Assembly (NCBI RefSeq): GCF_023278045.1
Contig: NZ_CP056783.1
Span: 1,831,501-1,895,500 of the forward strand
DNA length: 64,000 nucleotides
Direction of reading: 5' to 3'
Source of the DNA: Flavobacterium sp. K5-23
Lineage (GTDB): Bacteria; Bacteroidota; Bacteroidia; Flavobacteriales; Flavobacteriaceae
Shown here: positions 10,333-62,190 of the stretch, piece by piece
Layout: every line of letters starts with the position of its first letter
Numbering within the stretch: the first letter of the stretch is position 1
Notes under the pieces: model-generated
Database searches by the model: none
What the model was told of the DNA's origin: nothing
The model's input: only the letters and a program-made list of their open reading frames with translations
Translations under genes and position numbers: made by a program

Positions 10333-12018
10333 ATGATGACCTATTTAGATGAAATATTAAAATCCCGTCGCGACACTCGCCATTTTACTAATGATGAAGT
10401 TCCTGATGCCGTTATCCAAAAAGCGCTTCAGGCAGGACATTGGGCACCTTCTGTTGGTTTGACTGATGCAACTAAATATTATCTGATTAAGTCGGACGAA
10501 ATTAAGAAAGCGGTTAAGAAATTGTTTTTGGATTATGATACTAAAGCTGCAAATCTAACAGATAACGAGCAACAAAAAGCGGATTATAAAGCTCTAAAGT
10601 TGGAAGCTATTGAAGAAGCCCCACTTGGGCTTGTGATTTGTTATGATCGTTCGGTTTTGAATAATTTTACTATTGGGACTGTTGGGAGTACTGAAGCTAT
10701 CAAATATAGTTCTGTTTGTTCGGCTCAAAATATATGGTTGTCATTGACAGAGCAGGGGTATTCCATGGGATGGATTTCTATTTTAAATTATTATCAGTTC
10801 AAACAGTTATTAGGATTACCGGAACATATAGAGCCGCTGGGGTACTTTTGCGTAGGCAAACCCGCAACGGATTATGATAACCAACCGATGTTGCAACAAT
10901 TGAATTGGAAACAAAAATCAGAAGTGCCTTTTGTGAAAGAGATTTTAGTCTCAGTCCCAGAGTCATTGCGTGGGGTTGCGAGGGACGAAGCAAAGCAATC
11001 TCATCCAGAATCTACATCAATCAAGGATGCATTGCAACATAAAATTGACAGCAAAACCAAGCCTACAGGCTCATTAGGGGTTCTTGAAAAATTAGCACAA
11101 CAAATTGGCGAAGTGTTTCAAACCCTGGAGCCAAAAATAATCCAGCCCAATATTGTTGTTTTTGCCGCTGATCACGGAATCGCAGCACACGGTGTGAGCG
11201 CGTATCCACAGGATGTAACGAGACAAATGGTGACGAATTTTCTGGAAGGAGGAGCGGCAATAAATGTTTTTTGCAAACAAAATAATATTAAGTTGTCGAT
11301 TGTGGATGCAGGAGTGAATTATGATTTTTCGCCCAATGCCAATCTGATTTCAGCTAAAATTGCCAAAGGAACCCAATCGTTTTTACACGGGCCCGCTATG
11401 AGTGCGTCCGAATTGAGTTTGTGTTTTTCTAAAGGGGCAGCAATCGTGGATGCTATTGCTAAAACAGGCAGTAATTGTATTGGTTTTGGAGAAATGGGTA
11501 TCGGGAATACTTCGACAGCTTCGGTTTTGATGAGTATAATTACAAAAATGCCTCTTGAAGATTGTGTGGGATTAGGAACGGGAGTAAGTGATGAAAAATT
11601 AATTCAGAAACAAAAAATACTGAAAGCCGCGGTTGATAATTATTCAGGATCCCAAGAATTAGAGGATAAGCTAGCTTATTTTGGTGGATTTGAAATTATG
11701 CAAATGGCTGCCGGAATGCAAGCTGCTTATGAAAATAATATGCTGATTCTTGTTGATGGATTTATTTGCAGTGTGGCATTTTTAATTGCGCATAAAAAAA
11801 ATCCTGTGATCATCAAAAACGCTATTTTTTGTCATTGTTCGGCTGAACAAGCACATTTGAAATTGTTAGATTATCTGGAAGTGAAACCTGTTTTGCAATT
11901 GGGATTGCGCTTAGGCGAAGGGACAGCTTGTGCTATCGCATTTCCTATTATCCAATCAGCTGTGGCTTTTTTAAACGAAATGGCCAGTTTTGAAAGTGCT
12001 GGGATTAGTGGTTCATAA
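10333..12018 (+). CDS. bluB-cobT: BluB-CobT fusion: DMB synthase + nicotinate-nucleotide:DMB phosphoribosyltransferase
   Basis: 561 aa from the first of two tandem ATGs (10333 or 10336). Residues ~1-205 are BluB, a flavin-destructase of the nitroreductase fold (SRRDTRHFTNDEVP, GHWAPSVGLTDATKYYLI, LGYFCVGKPA), which makes 5,6-dimethylbenzimidazole from FMNH2 and O2. Residues ~227-561 are CobT (KTKPTGSLGVLE, FAADHGIAAHGVSAYP, GFGEMGIGNTSTAS, LRLGEGTACAIAFP with the catalytic Glu), which activates DMB to alpha-ribazole phosphate. The fusion channels DMB directly into nucleotide-loop assembly. The linker (residues ~210-226, RGVARDEAKQSHPEST) is encoded by a copy of a dispersed genomic repeat; see findings. 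Confidence 0.93.
   Translation: MMTYLDEILKSRRDTRHFTNDEVPDAVIQKALQAGHWAPSVGLTDATKYYLIKSDEIKKAVKKLFLDYDTKAANLTDNEQQKADYKALKLEAIEEAPLGLVICYDRSVLNNFTIGTVGSTEAIKYSSVCSAQNIWLSLTEQGYSMGWISILNYYQFKQLLGLPEHIEPLGYFCVGKPATDYDNQPMLQQLNWKQKSEVPFVKEILVSVPESLRGVARDEAKQSHPESTSIKDALQHKIDSKTKPTGSLGVLEKLAQQIGEVFQTLEPKIIQPNIVVFAADHGIAAHGVSAYPQDVTRQMVTNFLEGGAAINVFCKQNNIKLSIVDAGVNYDFSPNANLISAKIAKGTQSFLHGPAMSASELSLCFSKGAAIVDAIAKTGSNCIGFGEMGIGNTSTASVLMSIITKMPLEDCVGLGTGVSDEKLIQKQKILKAAVDNYSGSQELEDKLAYFGGFEIMQMAAGMQAAYENNMLILVDGFICSVAFLIAHKKNPVIIKNAIFCHCSAEQAHLKLLDYLEVKPVLQLGLRLGEGTACAIAFPIIQSAVAFLNEMASFESAGISGS
10961..11008 (+). repeat. dispersed GCGAGGAACGAAGCAATC-type repeat inside the bluB-cobT reading frame
   Basis: AGTCATTGCG + 10-base insertion + AGGGACGAAGCAA + 5-base insertion + TCTCATCCAG. 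Apart from the two insertions, 32 of 33 bases match the intergenic copy at 48291-48323. The insertions are local duplications (TTGCG and AGCAA) totalling 15 bases, which keeps the frame. Confidence 0.85.
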
Positions 12019-43800: not shown

Positions 43801-46122
43801 CTAATTTTCTAAAACACTCTCTTTCAGTATAGTATGCACCAATTCTTTCGTTGGTTTTTGATTTTTTAGTTTTTCACGAACCACATCAAAAGTCACTTTG
43901 AAATCACAACCCAGTTTGTAGTTGCTGCAACCATAAGCGGTATTTCCTTTTAGAACTGTTCCTTTATGGCATTTCGGACAAGCTAATGCATCCGATGTTG
44001 TTTTGTTTTCAGTGGGTGGAGTAGGAGCGACTGTCTTTTTAGGTTCTAATATTAACTTGAAATTTTCATCAAAGCGAAGTAATCCTTCCACGGTTCCGGC
44101 TTCGGTTTTAAAGTCTTTTAAATTTACCGTTGAGCCTTTTTGAAGTAATCTCAAGTATTGATTCTCGGATATTTTTTTCTCGGCAAAAGTAAAGGGTAAT
44201 AGAAAGTCACAACCGGCTTTATATCCAGTACAGCCATAAGCCGACTTTCCCGTTATAAGTGTTCCTTTTTTGCATTTCGGACAGGTTTCCGCCATTATTC
44301 CTGCCGCTTTCTTTTTTTCCACTTTGGCTTCTTCCTTTTGAACACTTCCCGCATGCGAAATATTAGCGCGTTTGGTTTCACTTCGTACTTCATACACTAA
44401 AGCTTCGACCATTCGTTTCATATTATTGATAAACGCACCAGCTGTAAAAGTTCCTTTTTCAATGTCTTTCAACTGCTTTTCCCAAGAACCTGTTAGCTCA
44501 GCTGACTTCACTAATTCATTTTGAATCGTGTCAATCAATTGAATCCCTGTTGGTGTTGGCAATACCTGTTTTTTGTTTCGAATAATGTACTGACGTTTAA
44601 AAAGCGTCTCGATAATATTAGCTCGCGTTGATGGACGGCCTATTCCGTTTTCTTTCATCAACTCGCGTAAATCTTCATCGTCTACCTGTTTTCCAGCGGT
44701 TTCCATAGCACGCAGTAAAGTCGCTTCCGTAAACTGATTGGGTGGCTTGGTTTCTTTTTCTAAAAACGAAGGCTGGTGTGGTCCTTTTTCGCCTTTTACA
44801 AAACTCGGTAATATATCGGCTTCTTTTTCTTTAGCATTTGGATTTTCAAAAACAACGCGCCATCCTTTTTTCAGGATTTCTTTCCCAGTGGTTTTAAAAG
44901 CGACATCGGCTGCTTTCCCGATTACGGTAGTATTGGCTACCAAACAATCGTCATAAAACACCGCAATAAACCGCTTTGTAATGATATCATATACTTGCTG
45001 CTGATTGTGCTGCAAATTAGATTGTATTCCCGTTGGGATAATGGCGTGGTGATCCGTTACTTTTTTATCATTGAAAACTTTGGTCGATTTTTTTATCTTT
45101 TTTTCTAATACCGGTTGTGTTAACGCAGCATAATTAGTCAGGTTTTGTAAAATCCCTTGAACTTTTGGATAAATATCGTTCGGTAAAAAGGTGGTGTCGA
45201 CTCTGGGGTAGGTGACTACTTTTTGTTCGTACAAAGTTTGCACAATTTTAAGTGTTTCATCTGCCGAAAACCCAAACTTGGTATTGCAATACACCTGTAA
45301 TCCTGTTAAATCAAACAGTTTAGGTGCAAACTCATTACCATTCTTTCTTTCAATAGAAACAATTTCGAAATCACTTTCTTGTACTTTATTGGCCAAAAGT
45401 TCTCCGTCTTCTTTATTCGAAAAACGACCTTCCTCATAACTGAAAAGCGTTTCTCTATATAAGGTTTGCAATTCCCAATACGGTTGCGGCACGAAATTTT
45501 CAATTTCTTTCCATCTGTCAACAACCATTGCCAGCGTAGGAGTTTGAACCCTACCAATTGACAATACTTGTTTATACCCGCCGTGTTTTACGGTGTACAA
45601 ACGGGTGGCATTCATACCGAGCAACCAGTCGCCAATGGCTCTGGAAAAACCGGCATAGTATAAATTATCGTAGTTGGCGGATGGTTTTAAGTTCTCAAAA
45701 CCCTCTTTAATGGCTTCAGTGGTTAGGGATGAAATCCATAAACGTTGTACCTCGCCTTTATAATTGGCTTCGTTCATTACCCACCGCTGAATGAGTTCTC
45801 CTTCTTGTCCCGCATCCCCACAATTGATTACCAATGTGGCTTTGTCGAATAAACTTTTTATGATTTTGAATTGCTTTTGGATGCCCGAATTCTGAACCAC
45901 TTTAGTTTCAAATTTTTCGGGAAGCATAGGCAGGTTATTCAAATCCCAACTTTTCCAATACGATTTGTAATCGTTAGGTTCTTTCAAGGTACATAAATGC
46001 CCAAAGGTGTAGGTTACAGCATAGCCATTGCCTTCATAATAGCCATCATGTTTGGTATTGGCCCCTAAAACGGATGCGATTTCGCGTGCTACACTTGGTT
46101 TCTCTGCAATACAGACCTTCAT
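43801..46122 (-). CDS. topB: DNA topoisomerase III (type IA)
   Basis: 773 aa. TOPRIM N-terminus with AEKPSVAREIASVLG and NCGDAGQEGELIQRW; here the usual DxD (DADREGE) reads DAGQEGE, as in many Bacteroidota TopB proteins. The active-site Tyr lies in KVVTYPRVDTTFLP, with SIGRVQTPTLAMV and ENGIGRPSTRANII in the cleavage domain. The C-terminus has two zinc-ribbon modules (CPKCKKGTLITGKSAYGC..GCDF and CPKCHKGTVLKGNTAYGC..GCDF). It relaxes or decatenates DNA by single-strand passage. Confidence 0.95.
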   Translation of the reverse strand: MKVCIAEKPSVAREIASVLGANTKHDGYYEGNGYAVTYTFGHLCTLKEPNDYKSYWKSWDLNNLPMLPEKFETKVVQNSGIQKQFKIIKSLFDKATLVINCGDAGQEGELIQRWVMNEANYKGEVQRLWISSLTTEAIKEGFENLKPSANYDNLYYAGFSRAIGDWLLGMNATRLYTVKHGGYKQVLSIGRVQTPTLAMVVDRWKEIENFVPQPYWELQTLYRETLFSYEEGRFSNKEDGELLANKVQESDFEIVSIERKNGNEFAPKLFDLTGLQVYCNTKFGFSADETLKIVQTLYEQKVVTYPRVDTTFLPNDIYPKVQGILQNLTNYAALTQPVLEKKIKKSTKVFNDKKVTDHHAIIPTGIQSNLQHNQQQVYDIITKRFIAVFYDDCLVANTTVIGKAADVAFKTTGKEILKKGWRVVFENPNAKEKEADILPSFVKGEKGPHQPSFLEKETKPPNQFTEATLLRAMETAGKQVDDEDLRELMKENGIGRPSTRANIIETLFKRQYIIRNKKQVLPTPTGIQLIDTIQNELVKSAELTGSWEKQLKDIEKGTFTAGAFINNMKRMVEALVYEVRSETKRANISHAGSVQKEEAKVEKKKAAGIMAETCPKCKKGTLITGKSAYGCTGYKAGCDFLLPFTFAEKKISENQYLRLLQKGSTVNLKDFKTEAGTVEGLLRFDENFKLILEPKKTVAPTPPTENKTTSDALACPKCHKGTVLKGNTAYGCSNYKLGCDFKVTFDVVREKLKNQKPTKELVHTILKESVLEN

Positions 46123-46210
46123 TTTCTCCTACTGATTTGAAGCCGCAAATTAAGGATTTTGAAATTGGTATTTAATAGAAATCTTCAGTAGTTATGAACG
46201 ACAATCAGAG

Positions 46211-46237
46211 AGTCATTGCGAGGAACGAAGCAATCAC
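46211..46237 (+). repeat. GTCATTGCGAGGAACGAAGC dispersed repeat copy
   Basis: A single forward copy of the family found again at 10.96, 47.36, 48.29 and 48.47 kb, between topB and the YdeI-like gene. Confidence 0.75.
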
Positions 46238-46279
46238 ACAGTAATTAGAAAATTCAAAAAGAAATTTCCATCCACATTA

Positions 46280-46930
46280 TCAACTTTTTTCTACTCGAAT
46301 GTATTTGTGTGAACCGTCGCAGCTGGGCATTTTTTTAGAAAATCCACAAGTGCAATCGTTGATTCCTTTACCGTCAAGAATTCGCGGAATGTGTTTTTCA
46401 ATTCTGTTCTCCCGTGTTTTGGATTGTTTCGAACCCGAAAAATAAAGATTATAACCTCGCTGCCGTCCCGTTGTTAAGGCTTCAAAAGCAGTTTTTAAAC
46501 TTGGATATTTAGCCAAAGCATTTTGCAGTTCCTCGACCAATTCAAGTTCCGTATTGCTTTTAAATTGTACTTTTAAACCCGCTTTTTCTATTTCAATGGC
46601 TTCATAAACATAGTTTTTTATGATGGTTTGCATTTCCTGAATCTCGAGTAGATTGGTAAACTTAAAGAAACGTACTGCCTGACTGTTTTCTCCGGGTTTA
46701 CTCAGTATGCCATTTGTGTCTTGTAATAAAGTCCCTTTGAAAAAACTAAGCGCACAAAAGGTTTTAAAACTCCCTATAAGAACAACGTTATTTCCTTGAA
46801 AGCTGTAGCAAGGCGTCTTCCATTTGAATTCTTCAGTAAGTCCACAATCAAGTAGCCATTGTCGTAATTGTTTCATTTCTGGCTGCCATTTTTTGGCATT
46901 ACTGATAAAGTCATCAACTTTAAGATTCAT
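46280..46930 (-). CDS. YdeI/DUF1801-like protein with a C-terminal CDGSH iron-sulfur motif
   Basis: 216 aa from ATG 46930 (MNLKVDDFISNAKKWQPEM); a longer frame reaches 47041, but those residues are not family-like. Residues ~10-110 are DUF1801-type (FKWKTPCYSFQGNNVVLIGSF, ALSFFKGTLLQD), residues ~120-185 the YdeI helical part (TGRQRGYNLYFSGSKQSKTRENRIEK). The tail is CTCGFSKKMPSCDGSH, an exact fit to the C-x-C-x2-S/T-x3-P-x-C-D-G-S/T-H pattern that holds a 2Fe-2S cluster in mitoNEET-type proteins. The role is unknown. Confidence 0.82.
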   Translation of the reverse strand: MNLKVDDFISNAKKWQPEMKQLRQWLLDCGLTEEFKWKTPCYSFQGNNVVLIGSFKTFCALSFFKGTLLQDTNGILSKPGENSQAVRFFKFTNLLEIQEMQTIIKNYVYEAIEIEKAGLKVQFKSNTELELVEELQNALAKYPSLKTAFEALTTGRQRGYNLYFSGSKQSKTRENRIEKHIPRILDGKGINDCTCGFSKKMPSCDGSHKYIRVEKS

Positions 46931-47560
46931 TTTATTGGTTTTAAATAAAGTGAGTTTTTTTGGTTTTATAAAAGTATTAAAAAATGTTTTGTAAATTCTG
47001 TGATTTTGCTGTAAATTAGAAACAGCAGTTATTGCTAACAAGTGCTTAATTTCATTAAGTTAAGATGATTCACACGTCACTTCGAGTAATTTTAAATATT
47101 AAAGCGACAGCTTTAAATGTTTAAAATTGTATCGAGAAGCTTATGAAATATAAATGTTTTCGATACTTCGTTATAATTTTCTATCGCAAATTATTGCTCA
47201 ACTCGAACTGATGTTCCCTAAGCTTTATGACATTGTATGATTGTCAGTGGGCGATTGTGTTTTTTGTTCAATCCATTTCCACAATATTGTCATCCCGAAG
47301 AATGAGGGATTACATCCAGTATATCCGCTTGAATGATTAATTGTATTTGCTTTGGATAGTGAGATTGCTTCGTTCCTCGCAACGACTTTAAATGTAGAAC
47401 TGTATTGCTTACTCAATTAGTTTTACGAGTTCTGAAGACCTCGTAAAGCTGGCTCTTGTGGATTACCATTATATAAAGTAATAAACAGATGTTAATTCAC
47501 GTAAATTATTCGTAAATTAGTAGAATCTAATCCCAAATTATTAACTAAAAGTTTACTATT
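46931..47560. repeat. repeat-rich gap
   Basis: No gene supported. Holds a TCACTTCGAG..ATCGAGAAGC..TCGAACTGATG element (about 47075-47213) with internal inverse pieces, a CATCCCGAAGAATGAGGGAT..CATCCAGTATATCCGCTT block (about 47290-47330), and a reverse copy of the GCGAGGAACGAAGC repeat at 47361-47386. The small minus-strand ORF across this block is a repeat translation. Confidence 0.65.
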
Positions 47561-48037
47561 ATGAGAAAACTAAGTCTATTTTGTTTGTTAATGTCTTGCA
47601 TAGGACTGCAGAGCTGTAAAAATTTTGAAAGTAATACAGACAAAGTCATAGAAGCGGATGGTGCAAAGGTCGTTAGTGTGCAATGCTATAAAGCGTTGTA
47701 TGAAAGTGATACTATTGATTTGAAAATAAATACCTTGAAGAACAATAAGATATCCGGAAATATGATTATGAAAATTGAAAATATGCCTATAAAAACTGGA
47801 GAAATTGAAGGTGAATTCCATGGAGATACTCTTTTTGTTGACTATTCTTTTATTCAAGGAACGAATGAAAAAAAAACAAGGAAAAATCCAATGGCATTAC
47901 TAAAAAAGGGAGAGGAACTCATTATGGGTAATGGGAAAATGGAAACCACTTTAGGACAGACTTATTTTATTAAAAACAGTCCAATAGATTTCGATCGTGT
48001 GAAATATAAATTTACTAGTGTGGATTGCGTCGATTAA
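47561..48037 (+). CDS. hypothetical lipoprotein
   Basis: 158 aa. Lipoprotein signal with Cys19 (CIGLQSC). The mature part is beta-rich (VSVQCYKALYESDTIDLKINTLKNNKISGNM, GEIEGEFHGDTLFVDYSF) and resembles small flavobacterial periplasmic lipoproteins. I do not recognise a named family. It sits alone between two repeat blocks. Confidence 0.72.
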   Translation: MRKLSLFCLLMSCIGLQSCKNFESNTDKVIEADGAKVVSVQCYKALYESDTIDLKINTLKNNKISGNMIMKIENMPIKTGEIEGEFHGDTLFVDYSFIQGTNEKKTRKNPMALLKKGEELIMGNGKMETTLGQTYFIKNSPIDFDRVKYKFTSVDCVD

Positions 48038-48571
48038 TGATACACTAATAAAAATAAATATTTTGCTTTTGCGATCTTAGACGATAAGCTTAAACCATCG
48101 ATTATAGAATCCTAAATAGGTATTTCTTGAATCGGTGGTTTTGTTTTTTAAAGTGAGATTGCTTTCTTATGGGAGAACAAGTTCAACACAAAGACTTTGA
48201 TTGTGGAATTGTATAGTTTACTCAATTTGTGTTATGAAGCTGTGGGTCTTGTTGTAGCTGGAAATGCACAAAATAAATATAGGTTTAGCAAGTCATTGCG
48301 AGGAACGAAGCAATCTCATCCAGTATATCCGCTTAGATGATTTGTTGATTATTGTGTTTTTTGTTCAATCCATTTCCTCAATCCATTTCCATAATATTGT
48401 CATCCCGAAGAATGAGGGATCACATCCAGTATATCCGCTTAGATAATTTATTTGATTTGCTTTTGATAATTAGATTGCTTCGTTCCTCGCAAAGACTTTG
48501 ATTGTGGAATTGTATTGCTGAGCACGGAAAACATTTCCGCGCTATTGGGTTACGGTTTTGTAAAGTTTGTA
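48038..48571. repeat. repeat-rich gap with an inverted pair of GCGAGGAACGAAGC elements
   Basis: Forward copy at 48291-48336 (extends into TCTCATCCAGTATATCCGCTT) and reverse copy at 48472-48496 enclose a CATCCCGAAGAATGAGGGAT..CATCCAGTATATCCGCTT block (about 48400-48441) like the one at 47.29 kb. No gene supported; the small ORF over it is a repeat translation. Confidence 0.75.
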
Positions 48572-49201
48572 TTATTCAATTAAATACTCATCAAATATTT
48601 CACATAACCTTTCCTGCCAACAAAATCCGGTTGAAGATATATTCATTACAAACCATCCTAGTCCGACTGATAAATAAAGATGTCTTCGAATGTCGTAAAC
48701 ACTATTTAATTCAATATTCTTCCAGTTTTTAAGCGCAATAATATCAGACATTGGAAGTCTTTCAATAATAAATGATACTCTCCAAAATTCATCTTTTGAT
48801 ATAATTTTATTACCAAAAAGAGTTAATGTCTTTCCAAGAAGTTTAGCTTTTGAACCCGTTTCTAATTTATCAATAATAGCAATTAATTTTTCACCTACTT
48901 CTGATTGATATTTACTGTCTTCTAAATCTTCAATTATTTTTTTTCGGTTGGTTTCTGATAAAGATGATGATTCTTTAAGAAAAAGAATCATTTTATTAAG
49001 AAACCTAAAATCATTTACCGCTACTCCAGTTTTCCAAATTCCAATTAAAGACCCTACAATTGGTAAATCTTTAAGTACACCATTTTCTAATATTGAATCA
49101 ATTGATATTTCTGCGATGTCAATTCCAATTTTGGTTAAATCAGATTCAGTAATAGTTTGAATAAGTGATTTAGAAAGTTCTTTATCGTTATTATCTGTCA
49201 T
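48572..49201 (-). CDS. uncharacterised protein with a central hydrophobic segment
   Basis: 209 aa. I do not recognise a family. The N-terminal ~40 residues are acidic and helical (MTDNNDKELSKSLIQTITESD), followed by an amphipathic/hydrophobic stretch LKDLPIVGSLIGIWKTGVAV, then helical charged sequence (ETNRKKIIEDLEDS) and a C-terminal part with FWRVSFIIERLPMSDI and YLSVGLGWFVMN. No signal peptide. Its position, between repeat clusters beside housekeeping genes, suggests an accessory gene. Confidence 0.65.
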   Translation of the reverse strand: MTDNNDKELSKSLIQTITESDLTKIGIDIAEISIDSILENGVLKDLPIVGSLIGIWKTGVAVNDFRFLNKMILFLKESSSLSETNRKKIIEDLEDSKYQSEVGEKLIAIIDKLETGSKAKLLGKTLTLFGNKIISKDEFWRVSFIIERLPMSDIIALKNWKNIELNSVYDIRRHLYLSVGLGWFVMNISSTGFCWQERLCEIFDEYLIE

Positions 49202-59789: not shown

Positions 59790-60018
59790 CACTTTTTGCG
59801 TAGCAAAAAGTGTGTGAATCGCTTATCCCGCTTTTCAGCGGGATATCAGAGAACTACTCTGGCAAAAAGTGTGTGAATCGCTTATCCCGCTTTTCAGCGG
59901 GATATCAGAGAACTACTCTGGCAAAAAGTGTGTGAATCGCTTATCCCGCTTTTTAGCGGGATCTCGGGCACTGCTCTGGCAAAAAGTGTGTGAATCGCTT
60001 ATCTTTTTAGCGGGATCA
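59790..60018. repeat. 59-bp tandem repeat array, each unit carrying a hairpin
   Basis: Units start at 59804, 59863, 59922 and 59980 (last partial, one 58-bp step). Each reads CAAAAAGTGTGTGAATCGCT, ATCCCGCTTTTCAGCGGGAT, then CAGAGAACTACTCTGG-type sequence, so the ATCCCGC/GCGGGAT stem recurs. The array follows an extra stem CACTTTTTGC-GTA-GCAAAAAGTG (59790-59812) right after the icmF stop codon. Copies 1 and 2 are identical. Confidence 0.92.
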
Positions 60019-61739: not shown

Positions 61740-62190
61740 CATTTCGATGCTTCCTTTGTCAGCACAGGCTCCGGAAAAATCTCATTACGGTTATCAACTT
61801 GATGTGATTTCTCCCATTGGTCGAAATGACAAACGGTGTGGAATGATTGTGAGGAGATTCCTCTCCAGACGCTTCGGGATCGGGCACGAGGGCTATGCTC
61901 GAATTGGAGAAGCAATGGCAAACGAGACGATATTCACGCAAACCCTCACCTCAAACTTGTCATTTCGACGAAGGAGAAATCTCATTACTTTTATCAACTT
62001 GATGTGATTTCTCCCGTTGGTCGAAATGACAAACGGTGTGGAATGATTGTGTGGAATTACTGTGTTGAGATTCCTCTCCAGACGCTAGGGGAACGGACAC
62101 GAGGGCTATGCACGAACTGGCGAAGCAATGGCAAACTGTACGGAATGACAAACTGTGTGGAGATTCCTTCTTTCAGCAATGTTGTCTTTT
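61740..62190. repeat. two tandem ~200-bp imperfect direct repeats (flavobacterial intergenic repeat)
   Basis: Block A from ~61786 and block B from ~61981 each read CTCATTAC..TATCAACTTGATGTGATT, CTCCC(A/G)TTGGTCGAAATGAC, AAACGGTGTGGAATGATTGTG, GAGATTCCTCTCCAGACGCT, then (CG)GACACGAGGGCTATGC and GAAGCAATGGCAAAC. Short ORFs in both strands here are translations of the repeat, not genes. Confidence 0.85.

What the first reader, a model, noticed from the sequence alone, without database searches (positions are those of the whole stretch)
10333..12018. Dispersed intergenic repeat appears to have become the linker of the BluB-CobT fusion
The DNA at 10961-11008 encodes the linker between BluB and CobT and aligns, 32 of 33 bases, with the intergenic repeat that recurs at 46.2, 47.4, 48.3 and 48.5 kb. 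Two small internal duplications (10 and 5 bases) keep it divisible by three. The simplest reading is that a repeat between two separate genes, bluB and cobT, was recruited as coding sequence when a stop codon was lost, giving a naturally evolved fusion linker. The repeat-to-linker conversion is seen directly; the order of events is inference.
Basis: partly seen in the sequence, partly recalled or inferred. Interest (0 to 1): 0.72.

Follow-up and report, generated by a model that had tools for sequence, protein, structure and literature searches.

The report
Dispersed repeat overwrote an enzyme linker
In some Flavobacterium species a short repeat that is scattered between genes also forms part of the bridge joining two vitamin-B12 enzymes; it most likely replaced part of a bridge that already existed and did not create the fusion.

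Summary
Observation confirmed: window 10961-11008, in the BluB-CobT linker, matches the dispersed repeat at 32 of 33 bases once 10- and 5-base duplications are set aside. The genome holds 33 other copies at up to 3 mismatches; reversed-pattern control 0. The proposed history is not supported. In 199 genomes sampled from the genus, 79 match and 68 have the full-length fusion. In 89 fusions read, the linker region is 40-49 aa (41-44 in 84); 11 carry the repeat, all 41-44 aa. Two adjacent unfused bluB-cobT pairs from other families overlap by 4 and 14 bases. So the repeat overwrote part of an existing linker without lengthening it. On a tree without the linker, bearers lie in two groups that do not form one clade (AU p 7e-4 or less), yet share linker sequence upstream: two gains or one transferred linker remain open. 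Repeat codons keep synonymous choices more than matched codons (p 0.00055; a cruder comparison is weaker). A second in-frame case is an hsdM gene. New variant of repeats read within genes, as in Rickettsia.

The parts
10333..12018 (+). bluB-cobT fusion gene (561 aa): 5,6-dimethylbenzimidazole synthase joined to nicotinate-nucleotide:DMB phosphoribosyltransferase
   Evidence: Pfam and NCBIfam matches; one open frame
10357..10860 (+). BluB (nitroreductase family) domain, residues 9-176
   Evidence: PF00881 1.7e-28
11011..12006 (+). CobT domain, residues 227-558
   Evidence: PF02277 1.7e-117
10945..10958 (+). linker segment upstream of the repeat (TTAGTCTCAGTCCC, peptide LVSVP), more like the linkers of a separate repeat-bearing clade than those of other relatives
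   Evidence: window, L144, L002, L061 score 13-21; clade A 8-17; 74 linkers outside both groups at most 9 (three clade A rows, 8-8.5, overlap with these)
10961..11008 (+). repeat-derived part of the linker, peptide ESLRGVARDEAKQSHP
   Evidence: 32 of 33 bases to 48290-48322 when the two duplications are set aside
10971..10980 (+). 10-base near-duplication inside the repeat, absent from the nearest relatives read
10994..10998 (+). 5-base duplication (AGCAA) inside the repeat, absent from the nearest relatives read
46211..46238 (+). dispersed copy of the repeat
   Evidence: (D20)
47360..47388 (-). dispersed copy of the repeat, reverse orientation
   Evidence: (I4)
48290..48322 (+). dispersed copy of the repeat with the CTCATCCAG ending found in the linker
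48469..48498 (-). dispersed copy of the repeat, paired as an inverted repeat with the copy at 48290
   Evidence: I3: 30-nt arms, 93% complementary, 149 nt apart

Best explanation
The BluB-CobT fusion existed before the repeat entered it. A tolerant linker of nearly fixed length joins the two domains, and its sequence turns over quickly. In two lineages of Flavobacterium part of this linker was overwritten by a copy of the dispersed GTCATTGCGAGGAACGAAGCAATC repeat. It is read in the frame that encodes the hydrophilic peptide ESLRGTKQSH, and the linker did not become longer. In the window's lineage the segment then gained a 10-base and a 5-base duplication that together keep the frame. Shown: the fusion is widespread, linker length does not depend on the repeat, the repeat bearers form two groups on the gene tree, and one species nested among bearers lacks it. 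Inferred: that the linker serves only as a spacer, that the repeat arrived by replacement (recombination or template switching) rather than by insertion plus compensating deletion, and which donor it came from.
For: Fusion in 68 of 79 matching genomes of 199 sampled (my count of its rows); 169 of 398 genomes match in the larger draw, whose rows were cut. Linker region 41-44 aa in 84 of 89 fusions and in all 11 repeat bearers. 11 of 89 score 18 or more against the repeat and the other 78 score 12 or less; shuffled 95th percentiles are 8.6-10.8 in the 35 rows printed. Three more bearers are L144, L153 and L157. Unfused neighbouring pairs overlap. Clade A plus the window group is rejected as one clade, p 7e-4, and the repeat rows plus L006 as one clade, p 3e-12 (groups named after seeing the tree). 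The excess likeness between window-group linkers and clade A linkers is +0.11 to +0.22 in three linker windows of 15 codons and +0.03 in a fourth; flank windows average 0.008, sd 0.03, the largest printed 0.087. F. sp. ZT3R18 (L006), sister to a repeat bearer, has a tandem SVPV linker in its place. The linker is the one long stretch without a majority residue in a 29-sequence alignment.
Against: Replacement versus insertion with compensating deletion cannot be told apart from lengths alone. The borders of the exchanged segment are not sharp: the upstream TTAGTCTCAGTCCC resembles itself in both groups, but TCTCAGTC occurs in none of the 30 own-genome loci read. The structure model gives pLDDT under 50 at 207-227 but is weak in the BluB half too (mean 71.6), so it says little about disorder. 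No unfused ancestor with adjacent genes was found inside the genus, so the fusion event itself was not seen; the two overlapping pairs are from other families.
Confidence: 0.82

Rival explanations
1. One reading: an intergenic repeat between separate bluB and cobT genes became the linker when the bluB stop codon was lost.
For: The repeat is intergenic elsewhere and has no stop codon in this frame.
Against: The fusion occurs across the genus with linkers of like length and no clear repeat in 78 of 89 read. The repeat bearers sit inside the fused genes in two places. The two adjacent unfused pairs found overlap by 4 and 14 bases.
Confidence: 0.03
2. A finer version of the best explanation: one acquisition of a linker unit (LVSVP prefix plus repeat), then passed between lineages by exchange of the linker alone, or inherited from an old ancestor and lost many times.
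For: The prefix is more alike between the two non-sister groups than with other linkers. The likeness is largely confined to the linker. Same strand and same reading frame in both groups. The linkers L002 and L067 resemble the repeat weakly.
Against: An exchange as short as about 25-45 codons would be unusual (my judgement). The endings differ: CTCATCCAG in the window, CACAC in four of 11 clade A bearers and other forms in the rest. A single ancestral gain needs at least six losses on the tree (my count).
Confidence: 0.5
3. A finer version of the best explanation: two independent acquisitions of the repeat at the same place in the linker.
For: The two groups do not form a clade. The endings of the repeat differ. 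A separate in-frame case in hsdM shows that the repeat can enter genes.
Against: The shared upstream prefix is not explained unless it is part of the mobile unit, and none of the 30 own-genome loci read has it.
Confidence: 0.4
4. On top of the above: the linker copy is kept like the dispersed copies by ongoing gene conversion, or by selection on the DNA or RNA sequence.
For: Codon identity given the same amino acid is 0.855 for nine repeat codons in 11 species, against 0.602 (sd 0.074) for matched flank codons, p 0.00055, and 0.667 for other linker columns (769 of 1153). Fewer linker mismatches in genomes with more copies: Spearman -0.55, n 14, one-sided permutation p 0.02. In hsdM the eight repeat codons are identical in DNA between orthologs whose 60 neighbouring codons are 66% identical.
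Against: 48 of 501 nine-codon windows of the same gene reach the repeat's value, and 22 of 675 eight-codon windows of hsdM are also fully identical. The correlation is not corrected for relatedness; Kendall p is 0.07, and within clade A Spearman p is 0.08. F. sp. ZT3R18 has 17-22 copies but no repeat in its linker. At the variable A/T site the linker letter agrees with the commoner letter of the genome's other copies in 5 genomes (G000, G287, G397, G983, G982), disagrees in 4 (G149, G167, G111, G093) and meets a tie in 2 (G156, G984) (my count). RNA folding is unremarkable.
Confidence: 0.3

Closest known systems
Rickettsia palindromic elements (RPE) in protein-coding genes (PMC3767692, passages seen; Ogata 2000 is cited there, not seen)
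   Same: Short dispersed palindromic repeats found in ORFs without breaking the frame, at the same site in orthologs. RPE-4/6/7 are rich in ATGAC, and this repeat begins with its reverse complement GTCAT.
   Different: RPEs are described there as inserted sequences of 100-150 bp, in solvent-exposed regions; here a 33-bp unit stands in place of linker sequence with no net length gain, in Flavobacterium. Common descent with RPEs was not tested.
Enterobacterial repeat units RU-1/2/3 fused to ORFs (Delihas 2007, PMC2759123, passages seen)
   Same: Intergenic mobile repeats read as amino acids when fused in frame to ORFs.
   Different: The passages place those at protein ends and outside conserved domains, some in doubtful loci; this one lies between two catalytic domains of a conserved enzyme.
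BluB/CobT2 fusion of Propionibacterium freudenreichii (Deptula 2015, PMC4657239, passages seen)
   Same: Same two activities in one polypeptide, with a spacer of about 34 aa; [quoted passage not shown] They note a few isolated fusions in Flavobacteria and other classes.
   Different: That spacer is proline-rich. In the repeat-bearing Flavobacterium linkers the present sequence is later rewriting and not a remnant of the fusion.
REP/BIME and MITE repeats (PMC2817692 and PMC10969869, search listings only)
   Same: Dispersed, partly palindromic, mostly intergenic, some copies paired in opposite orientations.
   Different: No associated transposase or parent element was looked for, and target-site duplications were not examined.

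Membership tests
BluB-CobT fusion enzyme | BluB and CobT domains in one open frame | tested here: met
BluB-CobT fusion enzyme | both activities present, with channelling of DMBI | not testable with these tools
   needs an enzyme assay
Flavobacterium dispersed repeat GTCATTGCGAGGAACGAAGCAATC | many near-identical copies on both strands, none in the reversed-pattern control | tested here: met
   33 copies in own genome, control 0; present in 220 of 398 genus genomes
Flavobacterium dispersed repeat GTCATTGCGAGGAACGAAGCAATC | mostly outside genes | tested here: met
   60 loci read, 58 distinct places: two lie well inside an ORF of 100 aa or more, six at the open 5' end of one, the rest in none (shorter ORFs not judged)
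Rickettsia palindromic elements | sequence homology to a described RPE family | not tested
   no RPE sequence was compared; only a five-base motif coincidence noted
Rickettsia palindromic elements | in frame in ORFs and at one site in orthologs | tested here: met
   linker of 14 species; hsdM of 2 genomes
Rickettsia palindromic elements | adds length to the host protein relative to relatives without it (as inserted DNA does) | tested here: not met
   linker region of like length with and without the repeat
MITE | terminal inverted repeats related to a transposase-bearing element, with target-site duplication | not tested
   inverted arms seen at 48290-48498; no parent element searched

The most novel reading that the evidence does not exclude
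In Flavobacterium a dispersed intergenic repeat repeatedly rewrites tolerant coding segments (the BluB-CobT linker; a segment of an HsdM protein) and is then held to the genomic repeat consensus at synonymous sites by continuing exchange with the dispersed copies, so that parts of conserved enzymes evolve in concert with scattered non-coding DNA.
Probability: 0.22. Interest if true: 0.72.

Novelty: new variant of a known kind. Interest (0 to 1): 0.47.

Why it matters
It gives a multi-species example of a dispersed bacterial repeat becoming coding sequence between two catalytic domains without breaking or lengthening the protein. It corrects the tempting story that such a linker is a relic of the fusion. 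Because species with and without the repeat, and with and without other genomic copies, are at hand, one can test whether coding repeat copies evolve with their non-coding relatives. It also offers a natural panel of about 90 linkers for one enzyme pair.

Tried and rejected
Rejected: chance resemblance. Rejected: repeat as the original intergenic spacer. Considered and not supported: an RNA hairpin at the repeat (three stretches, fold z-scores 0.01, -0.80, -0.76); an Rfam family (three matches, all below their gathering scores, in 46000-48700; the linker stretch was not scanned); spread by phage or plasmid (no blastn match of 48285-48500 in either collection). G031 looked like a split bluB/cobT but reads as an internally deleted copy of a fused gene with a non-repeat linker. 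G238 and G354 hold a CobT and a BluB-like protein at distant places. The letter of the variable A/T site in linker versus genomic copies was inconclusive.

Literature: four forms of the repeat sequence were not found in the PMC library; the listings of searches gave precedents and showed me no report of this linker. These searches cover open-licence papers only. Passages were seen of PMC9769881, PMC2759123, PMC4657239, PMC3767692 and PMC10038948; no paper was read whole.

Rows dropped: the rows were cut, so fused genes were tallied only for the 199-genome draw. Of the 89 fusions, the tree left out seven long-branch rows and 41 repeat-free rows, and added L144, L147, L153 and L157; the full 89-row tree is. 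Of the 70 loci, 16 were given, which printed 14 linkers; L153 was read. Species names of G handles were inferred by me from equal contig lengths.

Full report
What is there. The window's gene at 10333-12018 is a BluB-CobT fusion. Between the domains, bases 10961-11008 are a copy of a repeat that recurs at 46.2, 47.4, 48.3 and 48.5 kb. It matches at 32 of 33 bases once a 10-base and a 5-base duplication are set aside. Each duplication alone would shift the frame; together they add 15 bases. The window's genome (3.49 Mb, one contig) holds 33 copies of the 26-base core at up to 3 mismatches, on both strands, with none in the reversed-pattern control. The linker copy is not among the 33 because of its duplications. 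In the genus, 220 of 398 genomes have the 24-base core at up to 1 mismatch.

The fusion is wider than the repeat in it. In a sample of 199 genomes of the genus, 79 match the protein. By my count of the rows, 68 of these carry the full-length fusion, 9 show only a CobT match (51-58% identity), 1 is cut by a contig end (G003) and 1 (G031) is internally damaged. In 299 genomes of the family the only full-length fusions belong to the genus itself (G000, G059). In 295 genomes of the class, full-length fusions appear in six genomes of the genus and in two others, G814 (63%) and G922 (48%).

Linker length does not depend on the repeat. I read 89 full-length fusions. The region corresponding to window residues 197-241 is 40-49 aa in all and 41-44 aa in 84. 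Scored against the repeat, 11 of 89 reach 18 or more and the other 78 reach 12 or less. The highest of the rest are L002 (12.0), L065 (11.8) and L067 (11.3), which exceed their own shuffled 95th percentiles (9.1-9.2) but are not clear copies. All 11 repeat bearers are 41-44 aa long in this region. Three further bearers, F. hiemivividum (L144), F. sp. HJJ (L153) and F. aquicola (L157), were found among the loci that I read. The repeat therefore stands in the place of linker sequence and did not lengthen the protein.

No room for an intergenic repeat. Two genomes of other families (G909, G966) have bluB next to cobT, unfused. The genes overlap by 14 and 4 bases respectively (overlaps read from the printed sequence). 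A fusion in G922 has a linker that resembles the end of such a BluB plus the start of such a CobT; this resemblance is by eye. These outgroups are distant, so they show what unfused neighbours look like and not the actual ancestor.

Two places on the tree. With the linker left out, the repeat bearers fall into clade A (11 bearers plus F. sp. ZT3R18, which lacks it) and the window group (window, F. flabelliforme, F. hiemivividum, with F. muglaense, F. granuli and two others interleaved that lack a clear repeat). Holding all bearers plus ZT3R18 together is rejected (p 3e-12), and so is holding clade A with the window group (p 7e-4); I named these groups after seeing the tree. Yet the linkers of the two groups share a stretch upstream of the repeat, TTAGTCTCAGTCCC. 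Alignment scores are 8-17 in clade A and 13-21 in the window, F. flabelliforme, F. hiemivividum and F. muglaense, against at most 9 in 74 linkers outside both groups; the lowest clade A scores overlap with these. The likeness largely stops at the linker. The endings differ: CTCATCCAG in the window, CACAC in four of the 11 clade A bearers, and other forms in the rest. I cannot decide between two acquisitions, one acquisition with later exchange of the linker alone, and an old state lost many times.

Nucleotide-level keeping. Across 11 clade A species, six of nine repeat codons show a single codon wherever the commonest amino acid is kept. Mean codon identity given the amino acid is 0.855, against 0.602 (sd 0.074) in 20,000 draws of matched flank codons, p 0.00055; other linker columns give 0.667 (769 of 1153). 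Against this, 48 of 501 nine-codon windows of the gene reach the repeat's value in a cruder comparison. Linkers are closer to the consensus in genomes with more copies (Spearman -0.55, n 14, one-sided permutation p 0.02; Kendall p 0.07; clade A alone p 0.08; no correction for relatedness). Three species with repeat-like linkers, G256, G150 and G030, have no copy at up to 1 mismatch, and their linkers are decayed (3, 4 and 6 mismatches in 24). At the variable A/T site the linker agrees with the genome's commoner letter in 5 genomes, disagrees in 4 and meets a tie in 2 (my count). Together this fits exchange with dispersed copies, selection on the sequence, or simple decay after loss of the family; it is suggestive only.

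A second case. I read 60 repeat loci with about 1.5 kb of flank: 30 of the 33 in the window's genome and 30 from a search of 12 genomes, two of which repeat places of the window's genome, so 58 distinct places. Two lie well inside an ORF of 100 aa or more. One is the linker of G111 itself. The other is an HsdM-type methyltransferase gene in F. sp. ZT3R18 (PF02384 7e-84, PF12161 2.6e-16), read in another frame as VIARNEAI. Its 78% ortholog in G088 has the same in-frame repeat with the eight codons identical in DNA, while the 60 neighbouring codons are 66% identical; 22 of 675 eight-codon windows of this pair are also fully identical. Four more distant homologs aligned (38-43% identity) lack it.

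Structure. An AlphaFold2 model gives pLDDT under 50 at residues 207-227, but the BluB half is poorly modelled as well (mean 71.6), so this adds little. In a 29-sequence alignment the linker is the one long stretch without a majority residue. BluB and CobT each have solved relatives (2isj, 1wx1).

Comparison with the known. Rickettsia palindromic elements are the nearest precedent for repeats read in frame in conserved genes (PMC3767692, passages); enterobacterial repeat units fused to ORFs are another (PMC2759123, passages). The BluB/CobT2 fusion of P. freudenreichii has a spacer that its authors thought might be a relic of fusion (PMC4657239, passages). What differs here is that the repeat stands in place of linker sequence at constant length. 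The repeat sequence itself was not found in the papers searched.

Verdict. What remains is a well-supported case of a dispersed repeat overwriting the linker of an already fused enzyme, with an open question about how coding copies stay so like the dispersed ones.

Noticed in passing
L286 (G055:C6, F. sp. ZT3R18) and L307 (G088:C1): The same repeat lies in frame (VIARNEAI) in an hsdM-type methyltransferase gene and its 78% ortholog, with identical DNA over the eight repeat codons.
   Followed up: yes
L336 (G384:C3:361200-381000) and L337 (G129:C1:2483200-2501000): Eight same-strand matches (up to 4 mismatches; mostly GGCACG or GGTACG variants) to the repeat in each of two stretches of 19.8 and 17.8 kb, with mostly short ORFs on either strand between them; some are preceded by CCCTCTTGAGAGGGG or by CCTGCCACGCTACAGCGTGG. 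Looks like a cassette array (integron-like); identity not tested.
   Followed up: partly
L044, L048, L060, L280 (near locus position 1500): Reverse-orientation copies stand three to five codons before the first Met codon of a PadR regulator, a threonine synthase, a weakly methyltransferase-like gene (below the Pfam cut-off) and a nucleotidyl transferase gene.
   Followed up: partly
window 61773-62136: A second repeat, GTCATTTCGACGAAGGAGAAATCTCA, of similar layout to the linker repeat, in direct and inverted copies.
   Followed up: no
window 59794-60003: Tandem copies of a 59-base unit (GCAAAAAGTGTGTGAATCGCTTATC...): three in full, the first 34 bases four times.
   Followed up: no
G000:C1:2627061-2628458: A cluster of 12 copies of the repeat within 1.4 kb in the window's genome.
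   Followed up: no
L006 / L156 (F. sp. ZT3R18): The linker of this clade A species is a tandem SVPV repeat (GTCTCAGTCCCA) in place of the dispersed repeat.
   Followed up: partly
L273 (G031:C388): A fused bluB-cobT gene with an internal deletion that breaks the frame, in a fragmented assembly.
   Followed up: partly
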